The notes beneath the pieces were generated by a model, which made no database searches, was not told the DNA's origin, and worked only from the letters and a program-made list of their open reading frames with translations. A DNA stretch of 64,000 bases from positions 150,360 through 214,359 of the forward strand of contig AZLU01000057.1 of the NCBI GenBank assembly GCA_002224055.1, written 5' to 3'. The translations under genes and the position numbers were made by a program. How positions within the stretch are numbered: the stretch's first letter is position 1; each line of letters starts with the position of its first letter. Of the stretch, positions 25,453 through 53,270 are shown one piece after another. This DNA is from Pezizomycotina sp. ARF18. Taxonomy: Eukaryota > Ascomycota.

Positions 25453-26114
25453 TTACGGATGACCGCCGCCATGACCACCGTCGTGGCCCCCATCATGACC
25501 GCCGTCGTGACCGCCATCATGGCCTCCGCTACCATGGTCCCCCGCTACCATGGTCGCCACTTCCGTGATCACCGCCCCCGAACCTCCGCCATGAGTCCCC
25601 ATCATCCGGGCATCTCCAATCATGGAACCCTGGAGTATGACAGCACCTAACATCCCACAGATCCCTCCACCGCACTTCGGCGGGCACCTCGATCGACCCA
25701 GCCATCGTGGCTCCTATCATAACAGCACCGCTGATCCCACCTATCATTTCTGCCGCATTTCGGCGGGCACCGATTATCGAACCCGCGGTTGCTCCAACCC
25801 GGCGTATCGCAGCAGCGTGAATCCCACGGCGCGCCGTTGTAGCATTTTGGCGGGCAGCGGTGTCGGCCCACGTATGGTCTGGGGTATCGCAGCAGCGGGG
25901 GTCCCAGGGGTCGCGCGGGGAGCATTTGGGGCGGCAGTATGGTCGTTGGGTATAGCGGCAGCAGTCCGAGTCCCAGTGGCCGTGGTGGTCGCATTGGAGG
26001 TTGTGCTGTGGACCTCCGCCCCTACCGCCATCGTTACCGGGCTAGCGAGGGAGTGGCTGCTGCGAAGCCGACGATAGCTGCGGATGCAGCGATTAGGGAA
26101 AGTGAGAACTTCAT
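25453..26114 (-). CDS. Secreted cysteine-rich repeat protein (WDxRCC repeats) with a Gly/His tail
   Basis: Start ATG at 26114 gives the signal peptide MKFSLSLIAASAAIVGFAAA. After a frame change near 26037 the mature part begins PGNDGGRGGGPQHNLQC and then runs through about five units built on C-(P/R)-P-K-C-x4/6-W-D-x-R-C-C. Examples are CPPKCYNGAPWDSRCCDTPG, CPPKCGRNDRWDQRCCYDRS and CRPKCSPRDPWDPRCCDTP. The last unit reads IWDVRCCHTPGFHDWRCP. The C-terminus is a low-complexity tail of repeated G-G-H-D ending GGGHP, stop 25455-25453, about 215 residues. Further frame changes are needed near 25885, 25680 and 25545. Many Cys, Asp and His suggest disulfide cross-links and possible metal binding. 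The repeat is not a family I know. Confidence 0.75.
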
Positions 26115-30455: not shown

Positions 30456-33400
30456 ATGATGGCGGACTTCACTTTACCCCGGCGGTGGGTCGAGTTTTTA
30501 GTTGTGCTATTACAACTCACTAATCCATTAGAAGCACTAAAGCTATCGCGGCGGGGCGCGGTTTACGGCTCGCCGACGTATCGCGAATCGCAAATCGAAA
30601 ACATACCGACGTCGCCTTCAGAACACGGCTACGCCCACGGTGCCGTCGCGTGGCCGACGAATCAGACTACGGAACATGACGGCGATGTAGTGTACTCAAC
30701 GCGTTTCTTGCGACCGACGAGAGATGCTCACGGAGTTCACGTCGCATACTTCGTCTGATTTTGCCAGCGGGGAGGACATACACACTGCACTGGCCGATGT
30801 GGGACCGCAAGCGCAGATATCGGGTAGGTTTCGCGACGGCGGCGCGAAGGGAAAATTGGAACTACACCCCGCAGTACATTGGGATACAGACACAAGCGAT
30901 TTTAAACATCTACACCCAAGAAAAGAGGTTGCAATGCACTATGCGAGGTCGGTGGAAGAAAGGGGGTTGCATACGAGTTAGTACAATGAAAAGTTCATAC
31001 TGCGTTAGATCCTTTTTCAGCTGGGCTATTAACTGATGGGATGACAATGATATAGAGCATATGATGTCCCACGTATCGTCCGAATATCGTTACCCGGCCA
31101 TCGTTCTCGAGCATTCAAATTCGTCTCCTCTTATACTTGTTCGAACCCGAATGGACATACGGTCTTACGCGTCAACTTCAACAATACCAGGCATACTTAG
31201 AAGCGAAAAAACACTGGCCGAAGCAGGTGCAGCAAAATGGAAATATGTCTTCGTGGGGGATTCTAGCGCAACTGGGACAGCTGCGTCGGCGTCAATCCAG
31301 CGAGCAGAAGATTTGGTTCTGTAAGATAACGTCTATCTATAGACTCTCATATTGGAAGAATATGCTTTATACTCACTGAGATTATTTCAATCTAGGCTCA
31401 TGATTTTCATTTTCCTCCTACGCCGAGCACGTTGGCCATGTGTACACCGCCGATATACAATGTCAACCTGTTCCCTATGAGGATATTTGCGCCAAAGCGA
31501 CGATGAAATGGGCCACGAGATCGGCCAACGCCCGCGTCCGCCGCAGATACACCATCCTCCTGACCCGAAGTATCCACCACCTCCGGAGGGGCCTCTGTGT
31601 GTCATAGGAATTGCCGGACCCCCGTTCCCCGTGTACGACCCGGGAACAGATGATGGAGGCGGGGGCGGAGGTCAAATAATTACGACCAGCAGTAGTATGG
31701 GGGTGATGTTTACACCTACACGGTGATTAACGGAACAACGTATGAAATCACCTCAACGAGTACAGGCCAACACCATGTCGTTACTACTGTTGTGACTGGG
31801 ACGGACGGAAGCGTGATCACAGAGATCTTGACGGAGCCGGATACGCCCTCATCAACAAGAAGCTTTTACATCGTCACAACGGTTGTTACTGGAACAGACG
31901 GGAACTTGATAACGGAAGTTCTGACGGAGCCGGAGACTCCTTCCATAACGTCACCGCCGCCTCCCAGTACTGCCATTACGACAAAAGGGCTTTCCCACCT
32001 TGGCTTTCCATCTCGAGTTCCTCCTACCTAGGAGTTGACGGGCAATTTACGACGGCTTATTTCACTGTTACGGTACCAACTGCGACAGCGACGGGCAATG
32101 CAGGCGGTGTATACGTCTCTACTAGTGTTTATACTGGCGTGAATGGCAGGCCGACGACAGTATACTATACCTTGATGAGCACGCTTCCTCCGACTTCGAC
32201 TGGAACTGGAGGTTCTGGAGGTTCTGGCGGCGTTTACGTCTCCACTAGCGTTTATACCGGCGTCGATGGTAAGCCGACAACCGTTTATTACACCTTAACG
32301 GGTACTCCGCCGATCACCGCAACTCGGACTTCGATTAGATCCTCTAGTTCCTCATATGGAGGTTTTTATGTCCCTACGAGCGTTTACACGGCGTTGATGG
32401 TAAGCCCACGACCGTCTATTACGCAATAACGGGCACCAGACCTGGTTCTATCACTCGTACCTCAACTTCGTCCGGATCTTCGGTTTCAGTTAGCGGGAGC
32501 GGCTTTTACGTTACATCTGGTCTTTACACCGGTGTAGATGGCAAACCGACCACTGTTTATTATACGTTGACAAGCTCGCCTCGGGCCTCAACTACCTTTC
32601 CTTCTCGAAAAAACAGCGCGCAGCGGCAAATTTCGGCTACGGTCACGTCTACGCGGTCTAGCGCGTCTAGGACTACGTCATCGGGTTCTACTACTAAGAC
32701 CCTAATTCGAAGTCCTTCGGTCTCCCTACAGCCCGTTCCTATAACGTCGGGCGATGCAATAGGCGGAGATGGTAACGGCTGCGGACCTAAGAATTTCGAC
32801 CTTTGCTTAGATGACAATCTCGGTTATTTAGACCCCGAAAGCCTAGAGTTCTACTCTCAGTACTATCAGAACCAAGTCAACCAGAACTCGAAACGCAGAA
32901 GGGTCGGGTTTGTAAAAGGCAGCCTGGAATAAGTAACAGCAAAGCTATATACCTCGCGTCGAAGGTTTTGAAGAACCTGTCGCCGGTAGTCTCGAATGCT
33001 GTTAGCAGTCCGAACACTAATTTGGCGGCGTACAACGCGTCTACCTGTAAGCACCAATCTTGCTTTCCCTTTTTTCAGTTTGCTAATGTTTACTTGTTAT
33101 ATTTCTGGTACTCTGACGTTTCCTGACACTCCTAGCTTTCGTCACGAGCGGTATCGTCATCTCGGACTCCAACGCAAACATTGGTGACACGAACTACGGC
33201 GTTAACAGCCATCTAAGGGTTTCCTTACCCTATATTGATGGAACCTTCCCCAGGTCGGGCGCGTATAAGCAGTCCCTCACTTCGTCCGGAGACAACGCAG
33301 TGCTCATGTACTACGATGCTGACGCGAACGGAAACACTGTCGGCGTTTACGAGACACCGTTTAACTTCAATGCGGATATCGGTCTCACGGGTGAGCTCCA

Positions 33401-36400
33401 GTTTGCATTCTTGCCAACATTCACGACGACTTACGCGAAGCTTAACCTCGCCGGCCCAATGGCAATCACACACGGCGTTCTCCATATCGCCGACATGCCG
33501 ACGAACTTCACCATCGTTACCAACCTGTTAGAGTACCAGTTTCAGCAAGTCGGTATAACCGGGCCTCATGGAGATCGGAACGGACATCGCTATCGACGTC
33601 GGATACGACATGAGCGTCGCCTCGGAGAACGCCGCGATGATACAGTCCTACGGTGCAAACTGGAGTAACTTCAGCGTAGACCTCAACCTCATCGATTCGT
33701 CGCAGTCCAATTACCAGAGGGCTATGCGGACAGTATCTCCGGTAACAATTCGCTGTCCGGTCCAGTTGCAGTTTCCGCGCAGAGCTACGTGGAGGTTAGG
33801 TTCAACTTGGTAGTGAGGTCCTCTCGCGGTACAATTTCACCGTCGACACGTTCGCCGTTAAGGTCGGAGGCGGGCTGAGCGCGGTGGACTTTAACGAAAC
33901 CGACATCGGCGGGGAAAAGGCCAAGGTCAAACGTGAGTTGTTGAAGAGGGACGATACGTCCGCGAGCCGAGTTGCGAACGGGTCTCGGCGGCCGCGTACA
34001 GCTACGCTCATGTTCTCGCGAACGGTACCAGCATCGTCGTCAGCACGAGTCAAGGTGATACGAGCTGCGGTTCGTTCCCGTATACCTCCGATAGCGCGAC
34101 GAGTATCGCTTCCACGGGTGTCAGCGGTACGGCTTCGGCTAGCATCACGAGCCGGTCCGGCACCGCATCGGTCACTTCTGGGCTCACCGGCTCAGTATCG
34201 AAGACGTCCAGCAGCGCTCAGGGCAGTATTGAGATCACTGTCATTGATGGGATTACATCGACGATCATCGGGACGGGTACTAGCAGCTCTGGGTCTCAAT
34301 CTCCATTACAAGGACAGATAGCACAACATCAACAAGGAGCGATGAGATCACGGTCATTCGTGGGTCTACTTATACCCTAACTGCTAGTTCTAGTGACCAA
34401 ATTACTGCCATTAGCGAAACAACGTATACCCCCTCTACCACTAGCAGCGATATTACAGTTATAAGTGGGACCACGTATACTTTATCCAGGTCCAGCCCCG
34501 CCAGTACTGAAGTTATCACGACTTCCGCGAGTAACGAAATCACAGTCATCAGCGGAACCACGTACACGTTGTCCCCATCCACCAGTGGTCGAACTGCGTC
34601 TAGTACTAATGGAATCACAGCAAGCGACGAGTCACTGTCATTAGCGGATCTACTTATACGCTTTCACGTTCTGCCAGTTCGAGCAGCGGCGTTCCGGCGA
34701 CGACCACTGATGACATTACCGTCATTAGCGGCTCTACTTACAGGCTTACCCACCCTAGCTCTGACGTCAGTACTACTACCGCGTCGGGCAGCGAAAGTAT
34801 CATAGCGACTAGCAGCGATGAGATTACTGTCATTAGCGGGTCGACTTATACACTTTCTCGTTCTCATAGTTCTAGCGGCGGCATTCCGGCGACGACGGCA
34901 AGCGAGAGTGATGAAGTTACGGTCATTAGTGGGTCTACGTACACCATGACAAGATCTCCTACGAGCAGCAACAGCCTCACAACGTCGGCAAGCCACGACA
35001 TTACCGTTATTAGTGGATCTACGTTCACTATACCTCACTCCACTACGAGAAGCATATCAACAAGTGACGAAATCACGGTCGTTAGCGGAACTACGTACAC
35101 GCTTACCGATACTACTCGGATTTCTGGGACGAGTTCGGCTATATCTTCGGACATGGAAACATCATCAAGCATGGGGACACCTTATCCTACAGAGAGCGCG
35201 ATGTCGTACACGTCATTCTCGAGCAGTTCGGCAGGCGCGGAACCTCAGAGTAGCAGCGATACTGCAGGCTCGGTTTCGTCCGTTCCGTCGACCGAAAGCT
35301 CTACGGAAGGACCGATTTCCTCCGGTATTTTCAGCGTTACTTTCAGTGGAGTTTCGTCTTTCCCAAGCGAGACTCTAACCGCTATAATTTCCGATACATC
35401 GACCGAGACCGCTCGTCCCACCACTTCCGGCCAAGCAACCGATACCACGGGTTCATCGCATTATGATATTCCAAGTGACACGACCTTTAATACGATGCGA
35501 ACCAGTTACGGCGTTGTGAGCTCGTCAGCTTCAGAATCATCGCTGGCGCCGGCGTCGTCCTCACTAGGATCAACCTCGATCGGTGAAAGCACAATCATGT
35601 TTAGCGAGGGCGAGGAAAGTACTACTTTGCCGTTGTCTGGTTCGATAAGCGAGTCATCGGTGGCTTCCTCTCGGGCATCAAGTGAACCTACGACAAGCGA
35701 GCCTGGTATGAGTTCCACTGTTAGCACCGTGCTCACAAGGTCACAGGAGCAAAGCAGCACTGCAATCCCGTACTCTGCTGGGGAGAGCATTACCTCATCA
35801 GGTGGCAGCGTCAAGATCCGTTCTCTACTGGCATGCCTTCCTCTACTGCCGAAGGTGCGACGCCTACGTCCACTGAAAGCATCAGCTCATCAATGGTTGA
35901 GACCGAAGTTTCGTCCTCTTCTCGGGAACGCATCGATTCCTCCAGTAGCGAGACCGAAACGCCGTCTTCGAATAGCGAAGCAATCAACTCTTCCAATAGT
36001 GGTATGCCGTCGCCATTGAGTAGCACGGCAGGGGCTTCCACAAGTGACCACAACGTTACACCGGCTTCTTCTGTAATTTCAAGCGGTTACTCTGACCTCC
36101 GGGGTGTGTCTTCAATTATACCAAGCTCGGAGGCCGGAGGGTCTTTCGAAATATCCTCCGGTTCGAGTAGCAGGGCGGTCGAGTCCTCTTCTTCTACGGA
36201 AAGTCCAGGAGAATCAGGTTCGTCGGGCTTCCAGTCAACGCAGTCTCCTTTAGACAGTTCTGAGCCCACCGGCTCTGCGAGCGATTCGTCGGGAACGCCA
36301 GTAGATACCGAGGCCTCTACTACATCTGAAATTCCGAAAAGCACGGCTTATGAGCCGACGGAGAATTCCCTTGCTTCTCCATACCGCTCTTCGACGTTAA

Positions 36401-39400
36401 CCACAGATTCCTCGTCAGCAACTCCAGGGAGCACGCCTTCTACGGCACCGATTACTACTACTGCGGCAGTTCCTTCTGAAACGCCTACGCCCAGTGCTGG
36501 TGGAACTTCAAGCGAGACAGAGAGTTCTTCTCAGGCAAGCGAAGTTGAGAGCTCTACCCAGGGCGAAACGGTGTCCGAGTCTATGTCGAGCATTGGAACC
36601 ACGAGTTCAGCGGCTATTGTTGAAACTACAACGAGGTCGACAACTCCTGAGCCGAGCGAGGGTAGTAGTTCAGAAATCTCTGTGCATCTACCGGCCGTAG
36701 CTCTTCCGAGATGCTTTAACAAGTAGCGCTGCATTTACGTCGGAGGAGTCGTCATCGGCCGGAACTACGTCAGAAGTCGAACCTATGCCCACGACGAGGA
36801 GTGATAGTATTTACAGCATTAGGGAAAGCTCCGAGGCCCTGAATCGAGTAGCGTTCCTGAAATCCCTGCCACGAGCAGTGTCGTTGAGATATCGTCATCG
36901 ATCACGCCTGGGTCAACCACTGGCGGAGAAGTTCCTGGTACTAGTAGCGGCGTCGATGTATCGTTATCGGCCGCGAGTACCGCTAGGTTCACTACATCAG
37001 ATTCGGAACCGTCGACCGGTGCTGCTACTAATAGCGAAATGAGCGCGGTTGTTACAAGCTCTGGCGCTAGCGGGTCCTCGAAGGAGGCTTTATCGACAAG
37101 CAATGTTAGGATTGGGAGTACAGACAGCTCGACGACGACTTTGTCCATGGAAAGCTCCGGCGCGGCTACACCATCTGTACCAAGACCTACATCGACCGGT
37201 GCTGCTACTAGCAGCGAAGCCAGCTCTTCCATCATTGTTGGAAGCTCGACTACTTTCGTTGGTACGAATTTTGTCTCCGGGCCTGGATCTTCCGCTTCTA
37301 TGATCGGCGAGGCCTCAGAAGAACCGGCTTCGACCAACAGCGATATCGCCTTGGAGACTTCTGTATTATCGAGCGGGGCGTTGAGCCAAATGTCTAGAAC
37401 GACGGTTGGGAGCGAAACGGTAAGCCAAGCGAGTCTTCCGTTGGAACTTCAACAGAAGGGTCACGCTTCAGCAGCGGGAACGCGAAACTTCGTCCGTAGC
37501 TGCTACGAGCGTCCCTCCCAGTGATGCTGTTAGCACCAATGTGGGGATTTCGACTGAAGGGCCCGTTACGTCATCAGAAGAGCCTGGCATTTCCTCTACG
37601 GAAAGACCTGGGACATCCTCTACAGACGGGCCCGGTGCTTTCTCTACAGAGAGACCTGGTGTTACGTCTCAATCTACACAGGGACCGGTTACTTCTACCA
37701 AAGGGCCAGATATTTCCCGACAGAGGAACTGAGCGTTCATTCTACAGAAGGACCGGAATCCAGCGCCGTCTCACAGTCTTTTTCGACTAACGTGGGACCG
37801 GAGACGAAGCTTCCTCTGAGGGACCAAGCTCTACTGTATCTTACGGCGGAAGCTCAACTGGGACGAGTGAACTGATGGCTTCTACGGCGGAGGAATCCGT
37901 GCGCAGTACGTCTGAAGGTTCTAGACCGAGTAGCTCCGGTTCAGCAGGCCAAATGCCCTCGACGTCCGGCGAATCATCAACGGAAAGCGAGGTTCCGACG
38001 ACTACACAAAGCGGTTCGGAACCCATAGGCAGTCCGGCACCTTCGACTTCTGGTCCAGACAATTTGCCATCTCAAACGGCCAGCACAGTCGCTTCTACGG
38101 AATCGTATGCTAACACTTCCGAAATGGAGACTTCTAGGTTAACTTCAACGCTAGATACACTAGCTCTGGGATGGCAGCCAGTTCTTCACAGATACCGAAT
38201 GGACTATGAGTAATACACCCAGCACTAGCGCGAGCAAGTCTGAGTCCGGTGTTGAAAGCTCCGGGACACAAGTTCCTGTTCCCACTTCGACTGCATCGGC
38301 AGGCAGCCCTGAGATAGTATCCAGTTTCTCAGAGACGGCATCGAGTTCCTCAGAAGGAGCAATGTCCGGTGGCCCCGAGGTTTCCAGCTCTAGTTCACCA
38401 GAGAGCACGACCGCAGGAGAAGCAATGCTAACCTCCTCATCTACTAAGCCAGTTATCGTAGGCGTAGACACTACGACAGGTAGGGAATCCAGTACGGCGA
38501 GCGAATTTGCTCGCAGTACGTCGACACTGGCGACACTGGCGCCACTGGCGCCAATGGAAAGTTCCCCAGCCCCTGAGACTTCTACCCAGCCTTCGGAAAC
38601 AACTAGTGATCAAGAGCACGCGGATACGTCAACCGAGTTATCATCAAGTTCCCCTAGCCAGGTCGCTCATCGTCAGCCGAGCAGTCAAGCACGGCAGCTG
38701 GTACTGAGGCGCCAGCCTCTGAATCATCAGGAATGACAACGGGAGAGCCCGTAACGACGTCTTCTTCTGCCGAGTCGAGTAGCGTGATAGTTGCAGATAC
38801 CACGACTGGCGTCGAAAGCGACCTGCCGCGCAGCGCCTCGACATTCGCCCCCACCGAAAGCGCTCTGGCTGCTACATTTTCCCGAGAAGGCTCAACGACA
38901 GTTGGGGCAGAGATTACAAGCTCCGTAGGGAGTCATCAGGTGTTACAAGTGAGCCTATTACATCCTTAACTGGAGAATCAAGCACATTGATTGGCCTGAA
39001 GGTTCAAGTACTGGTCCGATCGGAAGCGCGACGGCATTGGAGCCAACTAGTGAATTCGGAGTAATCAGTACAACTCATACTACAGAAGCGAGTAATTTGG
39101 CCGGTCCTGAGTTTTCAAGCTCGGGTTTGATTGAAAGTACTGAGCCTGCAACAACATCTAAGGCAGAGTCAAGTAGTGAAGTCGTGAGAGATTCCACAAC
39201 GAGCCCTGAAACGAGTAGCAAAGGGGCATCTACCGCCGCTCCAACGGAACCTATTCGAACTTCGCTAAGTCCTAAATTAAGTTTCACGTCAGATAGCTCT
39301 AAAACTCAGGCGAGTTCTGGTTCAATAGGAAGTACGACCGCGAACCCACTGTCGACTTCTTCATTCGAGTCAAGTGTTGAATATCCAGATACAAAACGGG

Positions 39401-42400
39401 TCCGGAAACGAGTAGTACGGATACCGAGCTACCCCACAGTACGTCGTCAGCGGCTCCGATTGAGAGAACCCCGGCCTCGACCTCGCTATCTGCCGAGATC
39501 CCATCTACAGCTGGTAATGGGGGTTTACAAGCGCGTCAAGCGAGGCGTCTTCTACCTTCGCCAGCGCATCGGAGCCCACGACACCAATGGAGTCTTCGAG
39601 CACGATGCCGATGAAGTCTGAGATTAGCAGCACTGAGACGGACCTACCCCGTAGCACATCCACAGCTAGTCCGATGGAAACTGTGTCTGCTTCTACAACT
39701 TCGCCTGTAGAAACCTCACGTGAAATCTCATCAACGATTGGCGATGAACAGGCCACGACCTCACCAAGCGTGCCATTGAGCTTTGCGAGCGAGATTAGGG
39801 GCGTATCAAGCGAGCCGGCTTCGAGCATTGCTAGCGAGGCTATCCCATCCTCAACGCAAGGTTTGAGCACTATAACGGAGACGCAGTCATCAGGCTTAGA
39901 AGGAGAACCGAGTGCGACAAGCACTGAAGGTGCGTTTACTAGCAGCATGTCACCATCGGAAAGCTCTGCCATGTCTTCAGCTCCTGGTGCATCTTCCTCA
40001 TCTATCGGATCTCAACCTATCGCGACAACTACTCTTCCGGAGACTTCGGCATCATCTTCAGAGTTACAAGAAGCTGGCACGACAAGCAGCTATGCGGCCA
40101 CGCAATCGTCAAATGAGGAAGCCAGGCGAGCGAGACTAGCACGGAAGGGCGGGTTACACCAGCAGCTCGTCGCTTTCATCGATCGAAAGTTCTGCCATGT
40201 CCACAGCTCCCGGTGAATATTCCTCAGCTATTGGGCTGCAAGAGTCTATTACAACTACACCTTTTGAGTCTTCAGCATCAGCAACAGAGTCACAGGAGGC
40301 CATCACAACAACTACCTCCATGGCATGCAATCGTCAAGCGAGACAGAGGAACCGATTTCGACTAGCACATACATTGAAGGTGATTTTACCAGTAGCATTT
40401 CGATGCCTCCATCAATGGAAAGTTTCACAAATCTCGAGGGCCTTTTCTCGTCGAGTGGGCTTGAGGATGTTACAACGACTCATTCCGCTGGGCTTCAACA
40501 TCATCGGCTGGCCACAGGAGGCTGTCACGACTAGCTTTATGGGCATACAATCATCAAGCGAGGAAGGGAACCGGTTTTGACTAGCATGGACATTCGTGAT
40601 TTTACCAGTAGCTTTTCAACGCCGCCAGCGGTTGAAAGTTCTGCTCTTTCTACAACAGGCGAGAGACTCTCCTCCTCGTTTGAAGGCTCTTCCTCATCGC
40701 TGGAGTCTGGTGAACGTTCGACATCGTCAGCTCGGCGGAGGAAACGATAACCAATCCTGCTGGGCCTTCAACATCAAGTGCCTCCCGAGGTGAAAGCACA
40801 GCCGGTGGCTCATCTTTCCCAACTGAAGCGACGTCTAGGCTTAATGAATCTAGGTCGACCTAGAATTTGGCGAACCCAGCTCCACAACAAGCTTCAAATA
40901 CCAAGCGCGAGCGGTGAGGATGAGCGGACGTCAATTAGTACGCAAGGCAGGTTTACTAGCACCGGTTCAGACCCGGAAAGCTCTGCTATGTCGACAAGCG
41001 TGGGTATGCCTCGCCAGCCGAGCCTCACGAGGCTAGCACGACGAGGGGTTCTGCCGAGCCTTCGTCAAGTGAGTTGAAGAAGAGGGTACGACAAGTGGTC
41101 CATCTATGCTTACTGAAGCGACTTATACATCCGAAGAGCCAATCTCATCATCGGAAATCGTCCACGCGTCACGCGGAGTAGCGAGATCGAGCCGACCTCG
41201 ACGAACATTGATGATTTCACTAGGAGCGCTTCGACTCAAGCACCGGTGGAATCCTCCCCGCGCCTACCGCTACCGATCAGTCGCCCGCGACGACGTCAGA
41301 AGCCGAACCCTCTACAACCATGGCACAGAAATCTTCAATGATGACTGGGGCCGAGAGTACAAGGGTATCGAGCTCTGATGTTGAGATCAGTTCATCTGAG
41401 CCAACTTCAGGAGCCCAAACATCAAGCCAAGCGATGAAGCCAGACCGACATCAACTAGCGTTGAAGGTGACTCTACTAGCAGCGTTTCAACTCCGCTGCC
41501 AATGGAAACGTCCCTATCGTCTCCAGCTATCGATCAGTCGTTTCCAAGTCCTGCAACAACCACGCAGGCCGAAGGCAGTTCAAGCATGGTTGGTACCACC
41601 GAGATGCCTTCGACAACGACAGGACCTGAAGGAACAAGCGATCGGGTCGAAACCAGTCCGTCCGTGATGGCCTCATCAGAGGGCCTGGAAACCACCGTAT
41701 CGGCAACCAGCGAAGCGAATGAGCCGATATCTAGCAGCATTGAGGGTGGCTTTACAACTCGCGTTTCAAGCCAATCACAGATGGAGTCCTCCAAGCATCT
41801 TCGGCAATCGAGTCTGCTGCAACCACAACTGGGATTGAGCCTGAGTCTAGTACCGTTACAGGTGGAAGTCTGGTAACCTCCGAACGCCTGTCTCATCCAC
41901 AGTTAGTGCGCCAAAGAGCAGCGAGAGCCAACCAATTTCAACTTCTGCTACTGAGGGCCCAGAGATGGCTACTTCGGATATAGTGCCTTCCAAATACGCT
42001 ACCACTTCCATATACCCGAGTCGACTCAGCCGGGAGCAGACTAACTCCACCCTCGACGCCCCAAGGAGAGCCTGGAAGCAGTACCGCTGCATATGAAAGC
42101 CAGGTAACCTCTGAAATGTCTGTGTCGTCCACAGGTGGCGAGCCAATGAGCAGCGAGAGCCTACCGATCTCAACTTCTGCTTCTGAGGGCTCGGGAACGA
42201 CTTCGGAAATAGGGGCTCCTAAATACTCTACTACTGACATGTCCAAGTCCATTCGACACCGGCACACACTAGTACGCTACAACAGACAACCTCCGAAGGC
42301 CAGGTTGAGAGTATTACATCTGGACTGGCGGCAGAATCCACATCTAGTGAGCCAGTAAGGAGTGAGAATCCGCCAATCTCGACGTCTGCCGCCGAAAGTT

Positions 42401-45400
42401 CCATCGCGACTACGGATATGGAGCCTCTGAATACACCAGCTCTAGCATGGCCCAGTCTACCTCGGCGCCCGCTGTGAGTACTACACTCCAGCACACAGCA
42501 TCCGAAGGCGAGTCTGAGAGGAGTACAGGCACATACGAAAGCTGTATTACATCAGAACCGCTCACAGAATCGACTTCTAGCCAGCTGGTAAGTAGCGTGG
42601 ATCAACAGCTCCACGTCTGTATCGAGGGCCCAATGACGACCACTCAGGCCTAGAGTTGAAACTTCTACTGGCAACATGGCTGCGTCAACTTAGTGCCCGT
42701 CCAGACTAGCCTAGAGACGGTCACATCTCAACGAGGGCGGCAGTAGCACAGATGAAAGTCCGACGACAACCACGCCCGATGTGTCGACTCCAAACAGCTT
42801 TCAATGGTAACAGTCACAAGTAGTGGACTCGAGACAATGCCGACTACTATGTCAATAACGAAGCCTTCATCAGGTACTACTGAACTGCTGTTCGTAGCGC
42901 GTCGAGCTTCGAGTCGGGGGCATCTGAGGTACCACGACTCCAAAATACGAGAGCACTAAAAGCTCCAGGAGACTACAATTGGTTCGCAAGAGACGACAAG
43001 TATTTCTGATCAGGCCGCAGTTCCTCCATCGGGGCCGCCATCTGAGCAAGCATCGTCTTCGACGTATCAGATCACCACAAGTAACTCCAAGAGCCAGCTA
43101 TTACAACCATGGCGACACCTCCGAGTCTGAGGAATCTGTGCCACCCAAGTATCCCCGACCAGTTCGCAAGAGATCGCGAGTACCACAGATCAAGGTCCAG
43201 AGGGTTCATCAACCTCAAGTTGCGCCTAACAGCTCCAGCCAAGAGGCTTCAGTATCTACTTCAATTTCGTTCTATAATCCACCGAGTACGTTTTCAGTCA
43301 TTACAAGACCAAGGTCGTCCGTCTCAGAGACAGCGTCCCTTCAAACGTACAGTCTTCATCATTGCCCACGGATACTTCTGTGCTACCCAGGATATATCAA
43401 GCTCGGAGCCACCTCATGAAACTTCTTCGGTAACCGATATGTCAAGCACCGTCGCGACGTCCTCGATTGGTGAAAGCAGCACTAAAGCTCCGGATGAAGC
43501 TACTTCAAGTGTGGATCTGCTTCTAGTACGTCAGCGATTCCGGCGAGTCTGAGGTTTCGCAGCCTCCGAAATACCCGGCGAGCAGTACGCAAAAGCCTGT
43601 CAGTGCTTCGGACCTGGAATCCATGGTAACATCTTCGGACATCGCTGTCCCCGAGCAGACGAGCAGCTCGGGCGAGTCGCCGGAGCCCTGGAATTTCAAG
43701 CATTGCCGTAGAATCTTCTGTGGGCAGTTCAACCATCGAATCGCCGAGCGATACCTCTAGCACTCTAGGCAATTATCCGTCAGTAACAACTACTTCGTCC
43801 ATCGACCAATCTCCAGAGGAGACTCCCACACACTGGCCCTCAACTACCTCTGATGTTACAACCGCACAGGAAACTACGAGTTGGGAGTATTATCGGAAAC
43901 ATCGAGCGTTGGAGCATCGTCGGTTCAAGAATCGGCTGCTACACATCAATCGCTGAGTCTTCAGTTGGCATCACGTCCAACGCGCCGGATAATGAACCTG
44001 GACGAACTATCTCGTCCAGTCTCGCCCAGACGAAGCTTCAACAGCTGAGCCCTCGATGATGACCTCTTGGGAATTTCCGCTCCAGAAGGTACCACAAACC
44101 CAGAGGCATCCCAAGAAATTCGGCCTCAGAGGCGACCGAGCCGTCTACTGCTTCCGTACAGCCTTCAAGAGTCATTCCAAGTGATACTACATCGACATGG
44201 AGTCAACAGTGGCTATTGTATCAACCGTCGAAGGTCTGATTCAAACGTCTTCAAGTATCCAGTTGCGAGTCAGCTGAAACGACTGTGTCCTTCTCCACTC
44301 TTGGATCTCCAGATGAAACTTCTACGCAGGCAAATGATCTTACGACGGAGACGGTCGTCCCAAGTGATATTACGTCCGAAATGGAGCCGTCAGTTAGAAC
44401 TACTACCGGAGTCTCCAGCACTGAAGGACCTGCTCCAATCACGTCAAGACTTCCTGTCGACCAGCCATCTAGGCCTAGTTCGACCGCTTTCCCGGGTGAA
44501 ACTTCCACCTAGAGTCCTCAGTTATCTCGTCTGAACAACCTATTACCAGTTCGCAAGAGGCTGCCATTGCCACCTCGGCGGCGTCATCTGATGAACCGGT
44601 GCCCCCGAAGTATCCTGCCCACCAGCTCCCAAGAAGCTTCGAGCTTACAGTCCCCAGCCGAAACATCGATTTCCAGTGCCGAACCATCGACGATCTCTCC
44701 CGAAGCAACAACTACCGGCGAAGGGTCATCCATGGCATCGGATATTTCGAGCGCTGAGGCACCAGGGGAGATTTCGAGCACTGAGGTACCAATGGATCAA
44801 ACATCTAGTAGCATGACTCAGCCCGGCCTGAACCTACGTCAAGCAGTGCCGCACCGATTACATCAACAGATAGTCAAATCCCCGGTATCGGCTAGTTCGA
44901 GCGTTGGATCACCAAGAGGAAGTCTCGACTACTCAAATTGAACCCTTCCCTCGGGCACTTCTCTCGCTGGCGCTCCCAATCAAGAATCTAGCATCAGCAC
45001 GGCCACCAGTTGAGACAACGTCCGTGTCCGAATCCGAAATACCCTCCCGTACGTCTAGTACACCAGGTGGCGCAACGATTTCGACGGCGCAGCAAATTGA
45101 AGCAAGTTCGACCCAGCCCTGGCGTCAGTACTTTGAACGAAGTATCATCTAGTATACACCGGCAGAGCCGATCAAGACTTTATCAAGCGTGGGACCTGAA
45201 AGCACACACCCTGCATCCAGCACTGATAACGTTCAAGAAAGCTCATCTACAGTGGCTGCTATTGAGTCATGCCTATCATATCAAGCGCCGAAACCTCTGT
45301 AGATACTACGTCAGTGTAGAGCCTAATTGTTGCGCAGTCGGTATCTAGTACAAAGAGATCATCTCAAGTTCGATTATCTTCAAGAAACGTCGATCAGCAG

Positions 45401-48400
45401 CGGTATCGAGGCGCCGGACTACTAGGACCGATATTGAATCTCGTTATTGGCCGGTGTCAAGCACTGAGGCACCAGTTGAGCCTACCTTAGCGCGGAACCT
45501 GATACGCTTCAGTCCACATCAAGGCAACGGCTAGCGGTTCCTGACGAAACCGTCATCTATTGAACCTTCCATCGTGGCCCAATCAAGCAACGGAATCACC
45601 AATCCAGTCTCCCTCTATCACTGGACCCGAGTCGACGTCCTTCATCTCAAGTTTGCCAGTAGAACAGACCACAGTTCGACGGATGGCATCAGCGACAAGC
45701 ATTAGCCCGAGGAATCAACGTCACAGGCGCGACACATTAGAATCTAAACGCAACCATCTCAGGCACCTTCTGAAGCAGCTTCTACGGTATCCGTCGTAGC
45801 TAGTAGGCGAAGGTGAAATACGACAAGCTCGGCGATGCCGGAGAGACGACTAACTGGCGCTCCGGAGCTGTGCCGGCTGTTTCTACGACGGAGATTTACA
45901 CCCAAACGCCCAGTCGTCAATTGAGACGCAATCGAGCGTGAAACCTGAGCTACAGACATCGAGTGGTGAGCCAGAAGCACCAGCCTCAACGTCCCTCCGT
46001 GGTTGGATCGCGGTCAAGTGCTCCCGCGCAGGAGAGACGAGTAGAGACGGAGTTGAATCGTCAAGCTCATCGGAGAACAATCCATCTCAACAAATTCCGG
46101 CGAGTACGTCAATCGTTGAATCGAAGGTCAAATTTTACGAGCGAGCCTGAGCAATCAGCGACTACATCTCCCATCGTAAGTACGAGCTACGGCGGAGACG
46201 ACTCGTGCCCAAGCCGGAGTAGGATCATCAAGCTCGCTTTTTGAGGAACAATCTCGCTCTCAAAATTCCGCACTAGGCAATGGTTGAATCTCAAGTCCAG
46301 ACGTTACAAACGAGCCTGAGCAAGCAGCGCTACGTCTTCCGGGATCGAAAGCTGAAAGCTCAAGCGTACCAGGAGCCGAGACCAGTACTCAGATCGGAAT
46401 CGAATCGTCAATCTCTGCAGGAGGACAGTCGACTATTTTCAGTCGCCGTCGCCTAGTGGAGCCTGAACAGCCATCATCAACCCCTCTATGCTGGACAACA
46501 GCCAGAAAGCACAACACACCAGAGAGAGGACTACCGAAGGTGGTAATGCCAACAAGCTCCGTCGAAGGATCAACTAGTACCTCGCATTGCCCACGACGTC
46601 CATTGTTGAACCTGAACCCCAAACGTCGACCAGTGAACCGGAACAGGCCCAATAATCTCCTCTATGGCCGAACAGCAATCAAGTTCGATCATGGCAGGAC
46701 AAAGCAGTACCGAGGCAGGGATTGCATCGACAAGTTCCGTCGACCAACAACCTGCTACGTGGGAATCGCCGCTAGTACCTCCATTGGCTCAACAGTTTGA
46801 ATCTCGGCTGACATCTTCTGGTGGGCCTGAACAGGCATCGTTTACTTCAAGTTTAGACGAACAGCCATCAGTTACACTCGTAGCTGGACAGCCACCGTCC
46901 GTCTCTTCGATAGCTGAAGCGTCAGAAAACTAAACGCGCCAGCTGAAACGAGTACTCAAGACGAAAATGTACCATCGAGTATCGAAGCAGCAGCTAGTAG
47001 CACATCCCAATCACCTGGTGAGACTACTTCGGCTCCCGAACCTCAATCTCAAACACCCGCCAGAGGCGTCGAGCAACAGCCAGGGCCTACTTCGTCACTT
47101 GAGGAACAAGGAAGCTCGACTATCCAGCGGTGACCAGTGCCCGGGATCAAGCAAATTGAGGAACCACCCACGACCGTTCAATCAGCTGTTAAAACTACTT
47201 TTGTTAGTGAATCCGAAACTCAGACATCTACAGCTGGCCCTAGACCGGCATCCACACTTCAACCGCGAGTCGCACCGTCCTGCCCGAACTGGGGTCGGCG
47301 TCCAACCGCTGAGGCCCCCACAGTCGCATCTACCGCTGGTCGAGCAACAGCCCACAAGTTCAACGCCCCAGTGGAAGAGCCGCACGCAAGTTATCCACCA
47401 ACACCGATCAGCCGTGTTTCGACTAGCGAATCGCCGGCCGAGATTATTTCCACAGTCGAACTCATCCTCGGCATCATCCGTTAGACCAGAGTCTGCTTCT
47501 AAAATCGTTGAACAGAGGTCATCGGATATTGCTTCCACCAGCGAATCACCAGTCGAAACGAGCACTGCAAGCATTCCCATAGCACGAAGCGAAAGAGTAG
47601 TGCCTAGTTCAAGTGTAGCAGCGTCGAAGAGACACCGTCGAGCAGTCAGCAAAGCTCGACTTTCGCCACGATGAAGCTCGAACGAGCGGCTGGCATTTCA
47701 ACGGCTCCGGCAACTACTCAAAACGAATCGATGCAATCTTCCTCTAGTCTGGGACTATCTAGCAGCTCTGTCGCCGCTTGGAATGCGCTATCGAGTTTCC
47801 GAGTCACAGGGGAGTCTAGCACGGTGCAGCTAGTCGGTACACGTCAAACGTTGAACCGGAAATCGCTTCGACATCGAGCATTGCCGTCCAGTTGAATCTT
47901 CTATCGACTCTACGTCGAGTGTTGCCGGTCCAGTCGAATCTTCTATTGCCCTACATCGAGCGTTGCGGTCAGTCGAATCATCCGCCACTTCCACGTCCAT
48001 CATCGGAGTTTCAAGCACCGGTGCCCGCTTCACGGAATCGACCTCAGTGCGAAGCTCAAATAACATCACAATGGCCAGTGACGCGACAAGCTCGGAGCCT
48101 ATTACGAGCAGTAAAGAGCCCACTAGTAGAGCAGCGAGGGCCCGCTACGACGAGTCAACCGCGTCAGTACATATACGTCACAAGAGTCCGAGCACGAATC
48201 AAGCTCCGTTTCTCACCGCGAGCGCCCAGCAGGCTATCAGCACGAATTGCTGCCCAGAGTAGCAGCGCCGTCGCGCCTCCTCAGTACCAGTAGCGGGGAG
48301 CCTATTGCCCCTCCGCATCGCTGGAATTTGAGTAGAGGAGCCGAAACATCCTCGGTGACGCCTGAGGATGCGACAACATCAGAGCCGGCTACGGCAGCGA

Positions 48401-51400
48401 AGTCCGCTAGTATTACAGTTGACCACTTCTGCACCATCCACGTCGCAGGGTCTGTCTGGAGTATTTCTGCGCCCGCCAGAGAAATCTCCACTTCTGCCGG
48501 CCCCACGTTCAATCGACGAGTGTAGAGGAGCGATTACTACTTCGTTGTCCGCGCGAGTATCGAGTGGCGAGGAGGCTATAGTCTTCTACATCAGCCGGAA
48601 TCTCGAGCATGAAAGCTGAAGCATCATGCAGCTACGAGTAGCGAAGGCTCAAGACTACTCAATCGAAGAGTCGAGCCGGAATCTTCTTCTACTGGAGGCG
48701 CCCAGGGGGCTTCGTCAACTGCCCAAGTATCAGCGTGAGTCCATCACTCCACGTCGCTGGAATCTCGAGCGGAGTTGAAATGTCGGCAGGTACGACAACA
48801 GCGGAGATACCACGAGTGGTTCCGAAATCCCAGTTTCCACAAGCGTTGCTCCTCGTGGCATCGACATCAGGAAAACGCCCAAGACTCCAGCAGAGCGAGG
48901 AATCTATTGCCTCCTCTGCGTCCGCTGGAGTTTCAGCGGTCAGGTCGAAACATCGATCATGTACCGGAAGCTACGTCAACTTCGGAATCGCCAGCGGAAA
49001 TGCCTACGAGTAGCGTTGAAATCCCAGCTTCGACAGCATTCCTCCCTCATCATCACAAAAACCGCGCCCGAGTCAACTCTTCCCGATGGCGAAGTCTCCA
49101 TTCCATCGCCGGTGTTCGATCGACTAGCGTGGAGGAACCGATCACCACTTCGTCGCCTCTCCATCCACTAGGATCCCAAGTGAAACCGAAACATCGTCTC
49201 AAGAATCCGCTCGATCAAGCTCCACGCCCGGCGATTTCTACGTCCATTGCCGGCACTCACACACAAGCGGGGAAGGGGCACTTCGGTACAACGTTGTCTC
49301 TGGAGAATAGCAGCGTCGGCGCGCCACCTCACGTATCGAGCAGTGAGGAAGCTATCGCTTCTACATACCTCCGTTGGAATCTCGAGTGGCGTCGAACTTC
49401 CTCCATGAACCCGGAGGATGCGACGACATCGCAGCCACAAGCGGAGATCCTGAGTAGCAGCGCCGAAATCCCAGCTTCCACAAGCATCCCTCCATCGGTA
49501 ACCATCATCGTCATCTCGAGAAATCCCGTCCGAATCAACTCTTCACCTGTCGATGATTTTTCCACGGGTAGTGTCGAAATCCCGGCATCCACACCCAGGT
49601 AAGTGCGCCGGAGTCAACTTCTTTACCTACCGATGAAGTTTCTATTTCATTGCCAATACTCAATCGACGAGCGTGAAAGAGGCAATCAGCACCACGTTGC
49701 TCCGGATAGTAGCCGCATCCCCGTGCCGCCTCAAGTATCGACTAGTAAAGAGCCAATTACTCCCCCACAGCTGAAATTTCAAGCGGTGAAGATCAAAAAC
49801 GCAGTTATGCCAGAAGGGACGGGCTCGGAGTCGCAGCGGAGGTATCTTCGACTAGTGCCCATATCCTACGTTCACAAGTATTCCTCCTTGGTACATCATC
49901 ATCTCAAGAAATCATCCGAGTCAGGCTCTTTACTATCAGCACCGGTTCGTCTCCAGAGAGTAGCAGCATCCCGCGCCATCCAAGTATCGACTAGGAGGAA
50001 CCTATCGTGTCGACGTCCGCTGGGATCTCGAGTGAAATCGAAACATCGTCAGCGATCCAGGAGGATACGATTACATCGCAGGCGCCAGCGAGATCCCGAC
50101 TAGCAATGCCGAAATACACCTTCCACAAGCGCTCCTGCCTCTCTTGCATCGACGTCACAGGAAAAGGCGCCCGAAATCAAGCTCCTTGCCCGGCGAAGTT
50201 CCACTTCCATGAACGATATCCAATCGACGACTCGGAGCATGGAGGAACGAATCAGTACCACGTCGTCTCCGAAGAGTAGTAGCATTGCGCACCCCGCAAG
50301 TATCAACTAGCGAAGAGGGTACCACGAGCGTTGCCCCGTCGGTGCCATCATCGACATCTCAAGAAAGCGCGCCCGAGTCAAGCCCTGTCCCCCGAAATTT
50401 CTACTTCAATTCCCGACGTTAAGCCAACGAGCGTGGAGGAGGCAATAAGCGCTCCTCCCCCGGGAGTAGCAGCGTTGGAGTATCGACAACTGAGCAGCCT
50501 ATCGCCACCCCGTCAACTGAAATGTCGAGCGGAAATTGAAACATCCTCTGCTATTCCAGCAGGGACAAGCTCAGAGATACCAGCAGAGATTTCCACAAGC
50601 AGCAGCGAAGCATCCCAAAACGTCCCCGCAGCGACGACGGGATCGCCAGCGTCGACCTTCGTTTCTCCGGGGAAAGTTCTAATTTCGCTGCCGGTAGTAT
50701 TCCTACTACCACGAGCATGGGAGAGGAGCCGATAACATCGTCTACTGATGGTAACAGTCCCGCTACCACGACTCAATCGCCCGCTGGCAGCTCATCTGCC
50801 CGGAAGCAGCAGCCAGGAGCCTATCGCCTCCTCGTCGCTGGAATTTCAGTAGCGAACCTCAAGAAGGTACGACGAGCAGCGTCGCAGGTACCCACCCGTC
50901 CCCACAACGATTAAATCGCCCGCGACAACCTCCGTATCTCCAGAGCAAAGTTCTACTTCCGCTCCAGGTGGTACTCCCTGCTACGACCAACGTGAGCGAG
51001 GAACCAATCACTTCTTCGTCAAGTGAGGAGAGCGGTCCTGAAACCACGACACCGAACGCCGCCGGCGGGAGCAGCACCTGGGAAATGCCAGCGGCGAGTT
51101 CTACCGACGGACCTTCCTCCACTGCCGGGGGTATCGATGCAGTTACTACCTCTTCAATGGCCTAAACGCGGCGTCATCATCGGTGGCCGGGCAAGCAGCA
51201 GCGTACCGTTACTATCCCGAAGCACCTGCCCTCAGCTCCTCGACCGGTCAGGAGGCGATTTCTACGTCTGGAACCAATGAGCAAAGCAGCAGCGCCGCGT
51301 CATCTTCTAACCGCGTTTCTACTGGGTACCACTCGTCACGTAACGAGCGTTGTCAAAGTAACCCCGTCCTCTTCTGGCCCCGTTGAAGCAGAAACCACGG

Positions 51401-53270
51401 CCTCAGCCGGGAGACAGTCTCTAGGTCGGTTGGAATGAGGGAAGCAGCATGCTGTCATCTTCTGAAATACCCGCGGCCAGTTCTGATCAGATCTCTGCTG
51501 AAACCGCGCCGGCTTCCAGCTCCGTTGAGGCCGGCACTACGGTCTCGAGTGGTCAACAGCCAATGCCGACATCCGTAGCCGGCGAGGAAAGCAGCGGCGC
51601 GGCTTCATCTACTGAGATACCGGCGGCGGGCTCCACGACGATGAAAGGCGCGTCGAGTAGTGTTGAACCGATGATCACTACGTCCGCTGGTGAAAGCGGC
51701 GCTCCGTCTTCCACCAAAGAGTCAGATGCCCCGTCCACGGAGGCTGCCATTAGGAGCTCGTCCGAATCGCCAGCCGTCCAAGTTCTTCAGCCAGCCAAAG
51801 GGAAAGGGAAAGCAGCAGCGTTGCGCCAGAGTCCTCACGCTCTTCGTCAATCGCTCCAGAGACTCCCACACATCGTCCGTCGAGGAGATTAAACCTAAGT
51901 CCTCCTCGAAGCGCCAATGACCACAGAATCCGCTTCGGAAGAGCCGAGTGTTAGCACCAGCAGCGAAGCAGTCTCATCTACGGCGGATCCGGACCCTACC
52001 GGCGAAGCGGTACCGCGACTACCTGCGTAAATTTAAAGACTTCAAGCGCCACGGTCTATACCTGGGTAAGCGCGACTTAGACTCCGAACAAGAGAACAAA
52101 GTACAACCCCGCGCGGTAAACGACTCCCCCTTCACATTCTTCAACTTCACCGGTTTCTCCGTCGGCAACCAATCCTTCTCCTCCACATCCGCCTCCTCAA
52201 ATAATCAGGCCGCCCTCATCGCCAACATCCAAAGCGGCCTCACCTCTGGAAACTTCAGTAATAAAGGCGCCAAGAATTTCGGCAACAGGTGTTCCGGACA
52301 GGAGAATACGGACAGGGCGAATTGCGAGATCAGGCCGCTGCAGAATGATACGGCGGTGTTCGTGTTTAGTAACGTGCCTGCGACGGCCGTTCAGGGGGGT
52401 TCGAATAGCGGTGGTGGCACTGTCAGTACCGTTTCTGTCGGCGGGCAGAGCGATGTTTCTGTTACGGTTACGGCGAGTACGGCGGCGAGTACGACGGCGA
52501 CTTCGACCACCGGTACCATTACAAGTACCGGAACGCGCACGGGTAGCTACACTAGCCCGCAAACCGAGCGCACGGCATCCAACACCGTCACCAACGCGCC
52601 CACAGCCCCGCAAACAACAAACCCGGCACACCCTCCCCGCATCTACCGCAACCGACAACCCACCGGACGCCATAGAAACCGCCTACGTCCCCATCATCCC
52701 GCCGACGGCAACAGCACCTTCGGCCTCTTCTCCGGCTGCGACGGCAACGTATACCTCGACGACCCGCGAACTTCCTCTCCTACCTCGAAAACCCGCGGGC
52801 CGGAAACTGCCAATCCTACACGCCGACTCGTCGTCAAGTTTCAAACCCTGGAGCATATGGGAGACATCGACGGTACCACGATCGCGAACTACTACGAGGA
52901 GTACTTTTGCGTCTACGAAGACGAGTTAACCGCCTACAATGTCAGTAGGATACGCACGCATCCACTGAGGAAATGCCGAGCACGGCTGTTGCGGCGTATT
53001 TAGTGCCGATTAATTTTAATAATTACGCGTACGGCGGGACGCTTACGGTTGTTACCGTTAGTGAGAGCTTTCCGTTTTGGCGCTGGCGGCGTGTAAGAGG
53101 ACCGGTGGCATCACGAAGGTATTTGCGGTGGCGGACCTGACGGGTTGGACAAGCTGAAGAATGACGGTTTGGTGGGCGGTACCGTTACTGGTGGGAACGT
53201 GGAGAAGTGTGAGCTTGTGGCGATGGCGAACGGGTATACGGGTTACAGCGCCGACCCTATGAGCGGGTAG
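30456..53270 (+). CDS. Giant secreted mucin-like adhesin/cell-surface protein
   Basis: About 22.8 kb, roughly 7,500 codons. The ATG at 30456 opens MMADFTLPRRWVEFLVVLLQ with a signal-peptide-like core, and HVAYFVLPAGRTYTLHWPMW follows. An intron lies at 31321-31395. Then come a Pro/Gly linker (PDPKYPPPPEGPLCVIG, near 31560), beta-type repeats (31777-32592), a soluble domain (32740-34080) containing NFDLCLDDNLGYLDPESLEF, an intron at 33046-33135, SFVTSGIVISDSNANIGDTN, LNLAGPMAITHGVLHIADMP and a Kex2-like KRELLKRDD. Next are the ITVISG cassettes (34222-35125), a Ser/Thr/Glu/Pro stalk (to about 51990) and a C-terminal domain (GFSVGNQSFSSTSASSNNQA through ANYYEEYFCVYEDELTAYN) ending GYTGYSADPMSG, stop 53268-53270. 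No terminal hydrophobic GPI signal is visible. Dozens of one-base frame changes occur. The first exon could be a separate gene; it is included because no other signal peptide is found. O-glycosylated stalk expected. Confidence 0.72.
31777..32592 (+). repeat. Protein-level repeats in the giant gene: TGTDG and YTGVDGKPTTVYYTL units
   Basis: Seven tandem units in the coding frame. Two read VVTTVVTGTDG(S/N)-(V/L)-I-T-E-(I/V)-L-T-E-P (from 31777 and 31866). One is a diverged unit (GVDGQFTTAYFTVTV, from about 32035). Four read (V/F)-Y-V-x-(T/S)-x-(V/L)-Y-T-G-V-(D/N)-G-(K/R)-P-T-T-V-Y-Y (from about 32109, 32232, 32364 and 32505), separated by Ser/Thr/Gly linkers of different length. Alternating beta-branched residues around a central DG turn suggest repeated beta-hairpins. 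Confidence 0.8.
34222..35125 (+). repeat. About eleven tandem EITVISG-S/T-TYTL cassettes in the giant gene
   Basis: Consensus (D/N/H)-(E)-(I/V)-T-V-I-S-G-(S/T)-T-Y-T-L, spaced 50-100 bp by Ser/Thr linkers. Copies start near 34228 (ITVIDGITST, diverged), 34338, 34398 (diverged), 34447, 34535, 34625, 34712, 34813, 34910, 34996 and 35062. They cross at least two frame changes, yet the motif resumes in the other frame each time. Confidence 0.85.
39907..40800 (+). repeat. Imperfect tandem repeat of about 215 bp within the stalk
   Basis: Units begin with a form of 'ctagcac...gaaggt...tttaccagtagc' (near 39921, 40134, 40366 and 40578) and close with 'caatcatcaagcgaggaag'-like sequence. Spacing is roughly 212-232 bp (about 72 residues). 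Each codes for S-T-x-x-G-x-F-T-S-S-x-S followed by a Ser/Thr tail. Confidence 0.6.
41930..42450 (+). repeat. Second imperfect tandem repeat in the stalk (period about 215-230 bp)
   Basis: Units recur near 41930, 42161 and 42376 with the core 'ccaatctcaacttctgctnctgag', followed by 'actncggatat' and 'cctnnnaatacnc'. In protein the core is P-I-S-T-S-A-x-E, then T-S-(D/E)-(I/M). Confidence 0.55.
47836..48003 (+). repeat. Short-period minisatellite in the stalk (about 42-48 bp)
   Basis: Four adjacent units with the core 'tcgaatcttctatcgactctacgtcgagtgttgccggtccagt'-like sequence (47875-48000), coding V-E-S-S-I-x-S-T-S-S-V-A-(G)-P. Units differ by substitutions and one-base indels. Confidence 0.6.

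What the first reader, a model, noticed from the sequence alone, without database searches (positions are those of the whole stretch)
30456..53270. A 22.8-kb mucin-like gene with ordered domain architecture
One coding unit seems to span a third of the window: signal peptide, beta-repeat block, globular domain, ITVISG cassettes, a stalk of about 5,600 residues, and a Cys-containing end domain. A secreted protein of roughly 7,500 residues would be among the largest fungal surface proteins. The layered layout (ligand-type domain, self-association repeats, rigid glycosylated stalk) is that of an adhesin or coat polymer, but I recognise none of its globular domains.
Basis: partly seen in the sequence, partly recalled or inferred. 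Interest (0 to 1): 0.85.

Follow-up and report, generated by a model that had tools for sequence, protein, structure and literature searches.

The report
Giant mucin-like fungal surface protein gene
A fungal genome carries what looks like one very large gene for a secreted, sugar-coated, mucin-like protein of about 7,500 residues with two unfamiliar end domains; its reading frame probably looks broken only because the genome assembly is full of small insertion and deletion errors.

Summary
The ordered layout is real. On the + strand, 31.6-52.7 kb, Ser/Thr-rich coding runs without a weak stretch over 100 bp, far above shuffles and the other strand. No single reading frame exists: a frame-following path makes 139 one-base jumps over 30.4-53.6 kb. 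Such jumps are not special to this gene: RPB2, another Rpb2-like gene and six CCT loci of the same assembly need as many frame switches per kb (3.6 against 3.0, introns included), so assembly indels are the likely cause. Three N-terminal repeat sets and three old stalk repeat families mismatch most often at the third codon position of the predicted frame, so the protein was selected for long. The domain pieces tested have no Pfam, NCBIfam or PDB match above cut-off and no clear second copy in the genome. I read it as one secreted, probably not GPI-anchored, giant mucin-type glycoprotein whose Ile/Val/Thr-rich cassettes may self-associate; dibasic sites stand at both stalk ends. It is an unusually large new member of a known kind, fungal Ser/Thr-rich surface glycoproteins. 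A single transcript, the function and the species remain unproven.

The parts
30456..30545 (+). start codon and leader-like N-terminus (hydrophobic run after two arginines)
   Evidence: best 9-residue mean hydropathy 2.49; sequence. No SignalP run.
31321..31395 (+). intron candidate 1 (GTAAGA...CTAG)
   Evidence: By eye; not listed by the scan, whose pattern does not allow GTAAGA.
31780..31962 (+). two VTTVVTGTDG...TEP units
   Evidence: mismatch by codon position 0.15/0.08/0.62 between the two.
32109..32593 (+). four VYVSTSVYTGVDGKPTTVYYTL-like units
   Evidence: mismatch by codon position 0.12/0.04/0.64; matches in the own genome lie only in this gene.
32740..33985 (+). non-mucin, Cys-containing domain region of unknown family, interrupted by an intron candidate
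   Evidence: Open pieces; pieces tested show no Pfam match above cut-off, no NCBIfam match above cut-off, no PDB match (142-residue piece) and no paralogue (same piece).
33047..33135 (+). intron candidate 2
   Evidence: Consensus scan; two other candidates of that scan (30485-30531, 38105-38154) were not adopted because in my judgement the coding frame runs on through them.
33929..33949 (+). two Lys-Arg dibasic sites between domain and cassettes
34341..35101 (+). ten ITVISG(S/T)TYT-like cassettes
   Evidence: mismatch by codon position 0.13/0.08/0.58, 207 synonymous against 94 non-synonymous codon differences over all pairs; matches in the own genome lie only in this gene.
35180..51950 (+). 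mucin-like stalk, about 5,590 codons
   Evidence: three old repeat families at 40.1-41.5, 41.9-42.4 and 49.0-49.5 kb with highest mismatch at the third position of the predicted frame.
52005..52073 (+). three Lys-Arg dibasic sites at the stalk/end-domain boundary
   Evidence: open frame 51921-53000.
51970..53270 (+). Cys-containing end region, last frame stops at 53268-53270; no GPI-type hydrophobic tail seen
   Evidence: no Pfam or NCBIfam match above cut-off and no credible PDB match; one weak match elsewhere in the genome (C101, E 0.0098, 33% identity, in the Ser/Thr-rich part of the query).

Best explanation
One gene of an ascomycete fungus encodes a secreted giant mucin-type glycoprotein of about 7,500 residues. 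The leader sends it into the secretory pathway (inferred). The Ser/Thr-rich stalk, more than 5,500 codons, would be densely O-mannosylated there and so become an extended, hydrated brush (inferred from composition and from how fungal Ser/Thr-rich secreted proteins are known to be glycosylated). The beta-type units and the Ile/Val/Thr-rich ITVISG cassettes around the N-terminal domain would let molecules stick side by side. The N-terminal domain would bind a partner, and the Cys-containing end domain would hold the molecule in the wall or outer matrix, since no GPI tail is seen. Together it would work as an adhesive or coating polymer of the cell surface. The broken reading frame is an assembly artefact. 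Shown: coding, order, long-term selection on the protein sequence, frame errors in other genes of the assembly. Inferred: single transcript, glycosylation, self-association, surface role.
For: Coding signal 0.295 per codon against 0.004 +/- 0.010 in shuffles. Weak Ser/Thr at 4.5% of positions, longest weak run 100 bp, against 40-58.5% and 400-700 bp in seven control tracks. In pieces lying within 34-52 kb, 4,595 of 5,880 codons fall in 20-residue windows with at least 40% Ser/Thr. Highest mismatch at the third position of the predicted frame in 3 of 3 N-terminal repeat sets and 3 of 3 stalk repeat families reported. Fewest frame switches 3.0/kb here against 58 in 15,941 bp (3.6/kb) in eight housekeeping loci; consecutive RPB2 profile segments lie in different, adjoining or overlapping frames, and CCT and the second Rpb2-like gene show the same. 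Ile/Val/Thr/aromatic fraction 0.41-0.44 in cassette pieces, 0.24-0.29 in three stalk pieces; the amyloid cores of Als and Flo adhesins are rich in Ile, Val and Thr (PMC6023273, passage).
Against: No transcript or peptide data. Frame switches are denser at 40-46 kb (4.5/kb) than at 34-40 kb (1.8/kb), so real decay of the distal stalk is not excluded. The housekeeping counts include introns, so their indel density is overstated; in the six CCT loci the sense values (3.2-4.8/kb) are not far below antisense (3.8-6.6/kb), and in one (C53) they are equal, so the two Rpb2-type loci (3.3 and 2.8 against 6.3 and 5.9) carry most of the weight. Structure models of both domain pieces had mean pLDDT 33 and 40 and say nothing reliable. 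No homologue of either domain piece was found. Jumps are hardly more often near homopolymers of 4 or more (14 of 139, 10%, against 7.4% at random places), so a typical homopolymer error is not shown.
Confidence: 0.62

Rival explanations
1. A decayed pseudogene: a once functional giant gene whose frame is now really broken.
For: 139 frame jumps over 30.4-53.6 kb; switch density higher at 40-46 kb than at 34-40 kb.
Against: Housekeeping loci are broken at a similar density. Repeats keep their third-position pattern, though that mostly records the past. No weak stretch over 100 bp, as a large insertion would leave, interrupts the Ser/Thr signal.
Confidence: 0.12
2. Several adjacent genes: for example a separate secreted gene at 30.4-34 kb and one or more mucin-like genes behind it.
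For: No transcript data; frames change throughout, so a true stop plus start could hide among the jumps.
Against: Ser/Thr-rich coding has no weak stretch over 100 bp between 31.6 and 52.7 kb, while the seven control tracks have longest weak runs of 400-700 bp.
Confidence: 0.18
3. The length of the stalk is an assembly product (misjoined or wrongly expanded repeats).
For: The assembly is error-rich; old repeat families exist in the stalk.
Against: Tandem Repeats Finder reports only five short rows in 35-52 kb; repeat copies are 62-83% alike to their reference copy, too different to be collapsed or expanded by an assembler.
Confidence: 0.06

Closest known systems
GPI-anchored Saccharomycotina adhesins (Als, Flo families; PMC9306254 abstract, PMC6023273 passages)
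   Same: Leader, N-terminal domain, Ile/Val/Thr-rich beta-prone segments and Ser/Thr-rich stalk in a similar order.
   Different: About three times the upper end of the usual length range, no Als, PA14, GLEYA or Flo11 family (names recalled) among the Pfam matches of the pieces, no GPI-type tail seen, stalk without strong tandem repeats.
Bad-1 type secreted adhesins (PMC6023273 passages)
   Same: Leader without a GPI signal, and a C-terminal domain that could hold the protein on the wall.
   Different: Bad-1 has Cys/Trp-rich 24-residue repeats and an EGF-like chitin-binding end; neither is among the repeats or Pfam matches found here.
Yeast Muc1 and other Ser/Thr-rich secreted fungal proteins (PMC3579731, one section and passages)
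   Same: Long Ser/Thr-rich, probably hyper-O-glycosylated region.
   Different: The longest Ser/Thr-rich region in that eight-genome survey was 1,429 residues; here the stalk spans about 5,590 codons at about 37% Ser+Thr over the noisy frame path.
Mad1 adhesin and mucin-family genes of nematode-trapping fungi (PMC6023273 and PMC3828140, passages)
   Same: Secreted proteins of filamentous ascomycetes that mediate, or are discussed for, adhesion.
   Different: Mad1 has a GPI signal; Pfam Mucin (PF01456) only reached 11.4 bits against a cut-off of 34.7 on an end-region piece.

Membership tests
Typical fungal GPI adhesin (features of PMC6023273) | N-terminal secretion signal | tested here: inconclusive
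   Hydropathy only, 2.49 over 9 residues; no SignalP available.
Typical fungal GPI adhesin (features of PMC6023273) | Ser/Thr-rich internal repeats and stalk | tested here: met
Typical fungal GPI adhesin (features of PMC6023273) | C-terminal GPI addition signal | tested here: not met
   Best 15-residue mean hydropathy in any of the three frames of 52.95-53.34 kb is 1.34; frame errors leave some doubt.
Typical fungal GPI adhesin (features of PMC6023273) | Segments with high beta-aggregation potential | not testable with these tools
   No TANGO; composition only, Ile/Val/Thr/aromatic 0.41-0.44 in cassette pieces.
Typical fungal GPI adhesin (features of PMC6023273) | N-glycosylation sites | not tested
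   Not counted.
Typical fungal GPI adhesin (features of PMC6023273) | Dibasic motifs | tested here: met
   KR only was counted: two at 33929 and 33944, three at 52005-52068, none in six clean cassette/stalk pieces (1,412 codons). The noisier path shows one more at 32914 and three in 40-52 kb.
Als family | N-terminal Ig-like/invasin domain | tested here: not met
   Pfam on the N-terminal pieces lists no such family; the pieces are broken and some (30.7-31.7 kb, 33.75-34.3 kb) were not scanned, so sensitivity is reduced.
Flo/PA14, GLEYA or Flo11 family | Named N-terminal lectin-type or Flo11 domain | tested here: not met
   None listed for the pieces scanned; same limits.
Pfam Mucin-like glycoprotein PF01456 | Score above the curated cut-off | tested here: not met
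   11.4 bits against 34.7 on 52293-52628.
Kex2-processed repeat proteins (definition from the PMC9769878 abstract start in the listing) | Multiple peptide cores each flanked by Kex2 sites | tested here: not met
   No KR in the six clean cassette and stalk pieces tested.

The most novel reading that the evidence does not exclude
A secreted giant mucin built in three separable modules: kexin cuts at dibasic sites at both ends of the stalk, freeing two orphan domains, while the ten ITVISG cassettes left on the stalk zip molecules together by cross-beta contacts into an extracellular gel. That would be a fungal counterpart of an animal gel-forming mucin, with a different assembly chemistry.
Probability: 0.1. 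Interest if true: 0.65.

Novelty: new member of a known kind. Interest (0 to 1): 0.4.

Why it matters
If one transcript, it would be several times longer than most adhesins that fungal cell-adhesion models rest on, with two domains that the libraries searched do not name and probably without a GPI anchor. It gives a concrete case for an open question put in a review (what dibasic sites in adhesins are for; PMC6023273 passage). It also shows how giant mucin-type genes can drop out of annotation because error-rich assemblies break them into pieces.

Tried and rejected
Considered and rejected: satellite or low-complexity DNA without coding (speak against it); Pfam look-alikes below cut-off (DUF7209, Phage_attach, Mucin, DUF2567 and others; DprA), taken as chance or composition artefacts because none reaches its cut-off; antibody heavy chains as PDB matches of the end domain (E 0.055 or worse) and an RRM chimera for the beta-type units (E 0.48), taken as chance. 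Led nowhere: single-sequence structure prediction of the two domain pieces (mean pLDDT 33 and 40), so no fold search was made; homologue searches with the same two pieces (8 candidates, none at E <= 1; 6,696 candidates, none at E <= 1), limited because only proteins of 0.55-1.75 times the piece length are compared. A control with an RPB2 piece of the same genome found 707 of 798 candidates at E <= 1e-10 (120 listed, best identity among them 75%, one named as a yeast), so the database holds fungal proteins, but it did not name a close species. Egh16-like genes (three matches at two loci) gave no support for a nematode-trapping fungus, which I had considered. The frame path takes frame 0 at 52006-52077, 52120-52293 and 52630-52917, where a 360-codon frame (51921-53003) is open and in my judgement more protein-like, at least up to 52.6 kb and from 52.74 kb; that frame was used for the end region instead. 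A paper search for giant filamentous-fungus glycoproteins listed two papers, neither relevant by title; PMC9548116 passages were not used.
Full report
Setting. The window is the last 64 kb of contig C57 of a 46.36-Mb, 408-contig genome. An RPB2 piece of this genome matches yeast-type Rpb2 chains best. I take it as an ascomycete fungus; that narrower label rests on recalled sequence features. The species was not identified; the rRNA request did not complete.

Is it there? A codon-path test over 37-52 kb gives 0.295 per codon on the + strand, 0.023 on the - strand, and 0.004 +/- 0.010 in 10 dinucleotide shuffles. Composition over that path is 24% Ser, 13% Thr, 9% Ala, 9% Glu, 8% Pro. Weak Ser/Thr positions make up 4.5% of those scanned in 31.6-52.7 kb, with a longest run of 100 bp, against 40-58.5% and 400-700 bp in the seven control tracks (its other strand, and both strands of three flanking regions). 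In pieces lying within 34-52 kb, 4,595 of 5,880 codons fall in 20-residue windows with at least 40% Ser/Thr, a rule like that of PMC3579731, where the longest such region in eight fungi was 1,429 residues. Here the longest run inside one unbroken piece is 393 residues; that the pieces form one protein is my inference, so the comparison is approximate.

Why is the frame broken? The path makes 139 one-base jumps over 30.4-53.6 kb, 88 of the missing-base and 51 of the extra-base type; a few cross intron candidates or lie past the stop. Simulation shows that such counts saturate above about 8 indels per kb, so dense parts are undercounted. The same happens in essential genes of this assembly: consecutive segments of the Rpb2 profiles lie in different, overlapping open frames of C82, and CCT and another Rpb2-like gene show the same. 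Counting the fewest frame switches for a stop-free path gives 3.0/kb for 31.7-52.7 kb and 58 switches in 15,941 bp, 3.6/kb, for eight housekeeping loci. Those eight are six of the eight CCT loci and two Rpb2-type loci (C82, C15); C236 and the two other CCT loci were not counted, and C257 was fetched but left out as foreign-looking. Their introns are included, which raises the figure. Antisense values are 6.9/kb for the gene and 5.6/kb for the eight; the six CCT loci show only a small sense/antisense difference, and one none, so the two Rpb2-type loci (3.3 and 2.8/kb against 6.3 and 5.9) are the better yardstick. Within the gene the density is uneven, 1.8/kb at 34-40 kb, 4.5/kb at 40-46 kb and 3.2/kb at 46-52 kb, which I cannot explain. 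Jumps lie near homopolymers only slightly more often than random places (14 of 139 against 7.4%).

Is the protein under selection? The ten cassette cores mismatch at 13%, 8% and 58% of first, second and third codon positions, with 207 synonymous and 94 non-synonymous codon differences over all pairs; read one or two bases off, the synonymous share collapses to 14 of 303 and 13 of 306. The four VYT units show 12%, 4% and 64%, the two TGTDG units 15%, 8% and 62%. In the stalk, the three repeat families found show their highest mismatch at the third position of the Ser/Thr-rich frame: 51% against 34% and 30%, 45% against 24% and 24%, 50% against 17% and 21%. These six tests agree with the predicted frames and speak for long protein-level constraint, in the distal stalk too. 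They are comparisons inside one gene, over non-independent pairs, and mostly of modest size.

What is it? Fourteen pieces (nine, five) of the N-terminal part, cassettes and end region have no Pfam match above cut-off; some stretches (30.7-31.7 kb, 33.75-34.3 kb) and most of the stalk were not scanned. Six pieces have no NCBIfam match above cut-off. Three pieces, from the domain, the beta-type units and the end region, have no credible PDB sequence match. Four pieces show no clear second copy in the genome (one search shows one weak match, E 0.0098, in the Ser/Thr-rich part of the query). Homologue searches with two pieces were empty while the RPB2 control was rich, but the length rule hides long relatives. 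Structure models were of no use.

How might it work? The order leader, beta-type units, domain, Ile/Val/Thr-rich cassettes, Ser/Thr-rich stalk and Cys-containing end resembles that of fungal adhesins as reviewed in PMC6023273 (passages) and, for Als5, PMC9306254 (abstract). I see no GPI-type tail in any frame near the end, so wall retention would have to go through the end domain or through self-association; secreted adhesins that rebind the wall are known (Bad-1, PMC6023273 passage). Dibasic Lys-Arg sites sit at both ends of the stalk and not in the six clean cassette and stalk pieces, which suggests but does not show kexin trimming. The noisier path shows one more before the domain (32914) and three in 40-52 kb.

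Verdict. A real, very large, mucin-like secreted protein gene, probably single and probably intact in the organism; a new member of a known kind. Function as adhesive or coating polymer is the best guess. The claim of one continuous transcript and the species both remain open.

Noticed in passing
L027 (contig C257, 56.5 kb; L027:933-3569): The 6-kb stretch fetched is AT-rich (GC 33.5%) with long unbroken ORFs, one of 879 codons matching Rpb2 domain 6 above cut-off and domain 7 below it. It looks foreign to the fungal genome, perhaps a virus or plasmid; observed only.
   Followed up: partly
window 25456-26321, - strand: Leader-like start followed by repeated CPPKC...WD.RCC motifs in changing frames: a Cys-rich repeat protein, probably secreted, no Pfam match above cut-off.
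   Followed up: no
window 55640-59170, + strand: Purine-rich, Lys/Glu-rich coding pieces in changing frames, AT skew up to 0.37, no Pfam match in the four pieces scanned: probably a second long, frame-broken gene of coiled-coil type.
   Followed up: no
window 5419-5940, - strand: Fragment of a Major Facilitator transporter (Pfam MFS_1, E 8.9e-12).
   Followed up: no
P0001: Best-scoring RPB2 match by bits is a protein filed under the bat Myotis brandtii (55% identity); possibly a contaminant in that assembly.
   Followed up: no
window 40147-42399: Diverged repeat units with starts 209-615 bp apart inside the stalk: remains of old duplications that built the stalk.
   Followed up: yes
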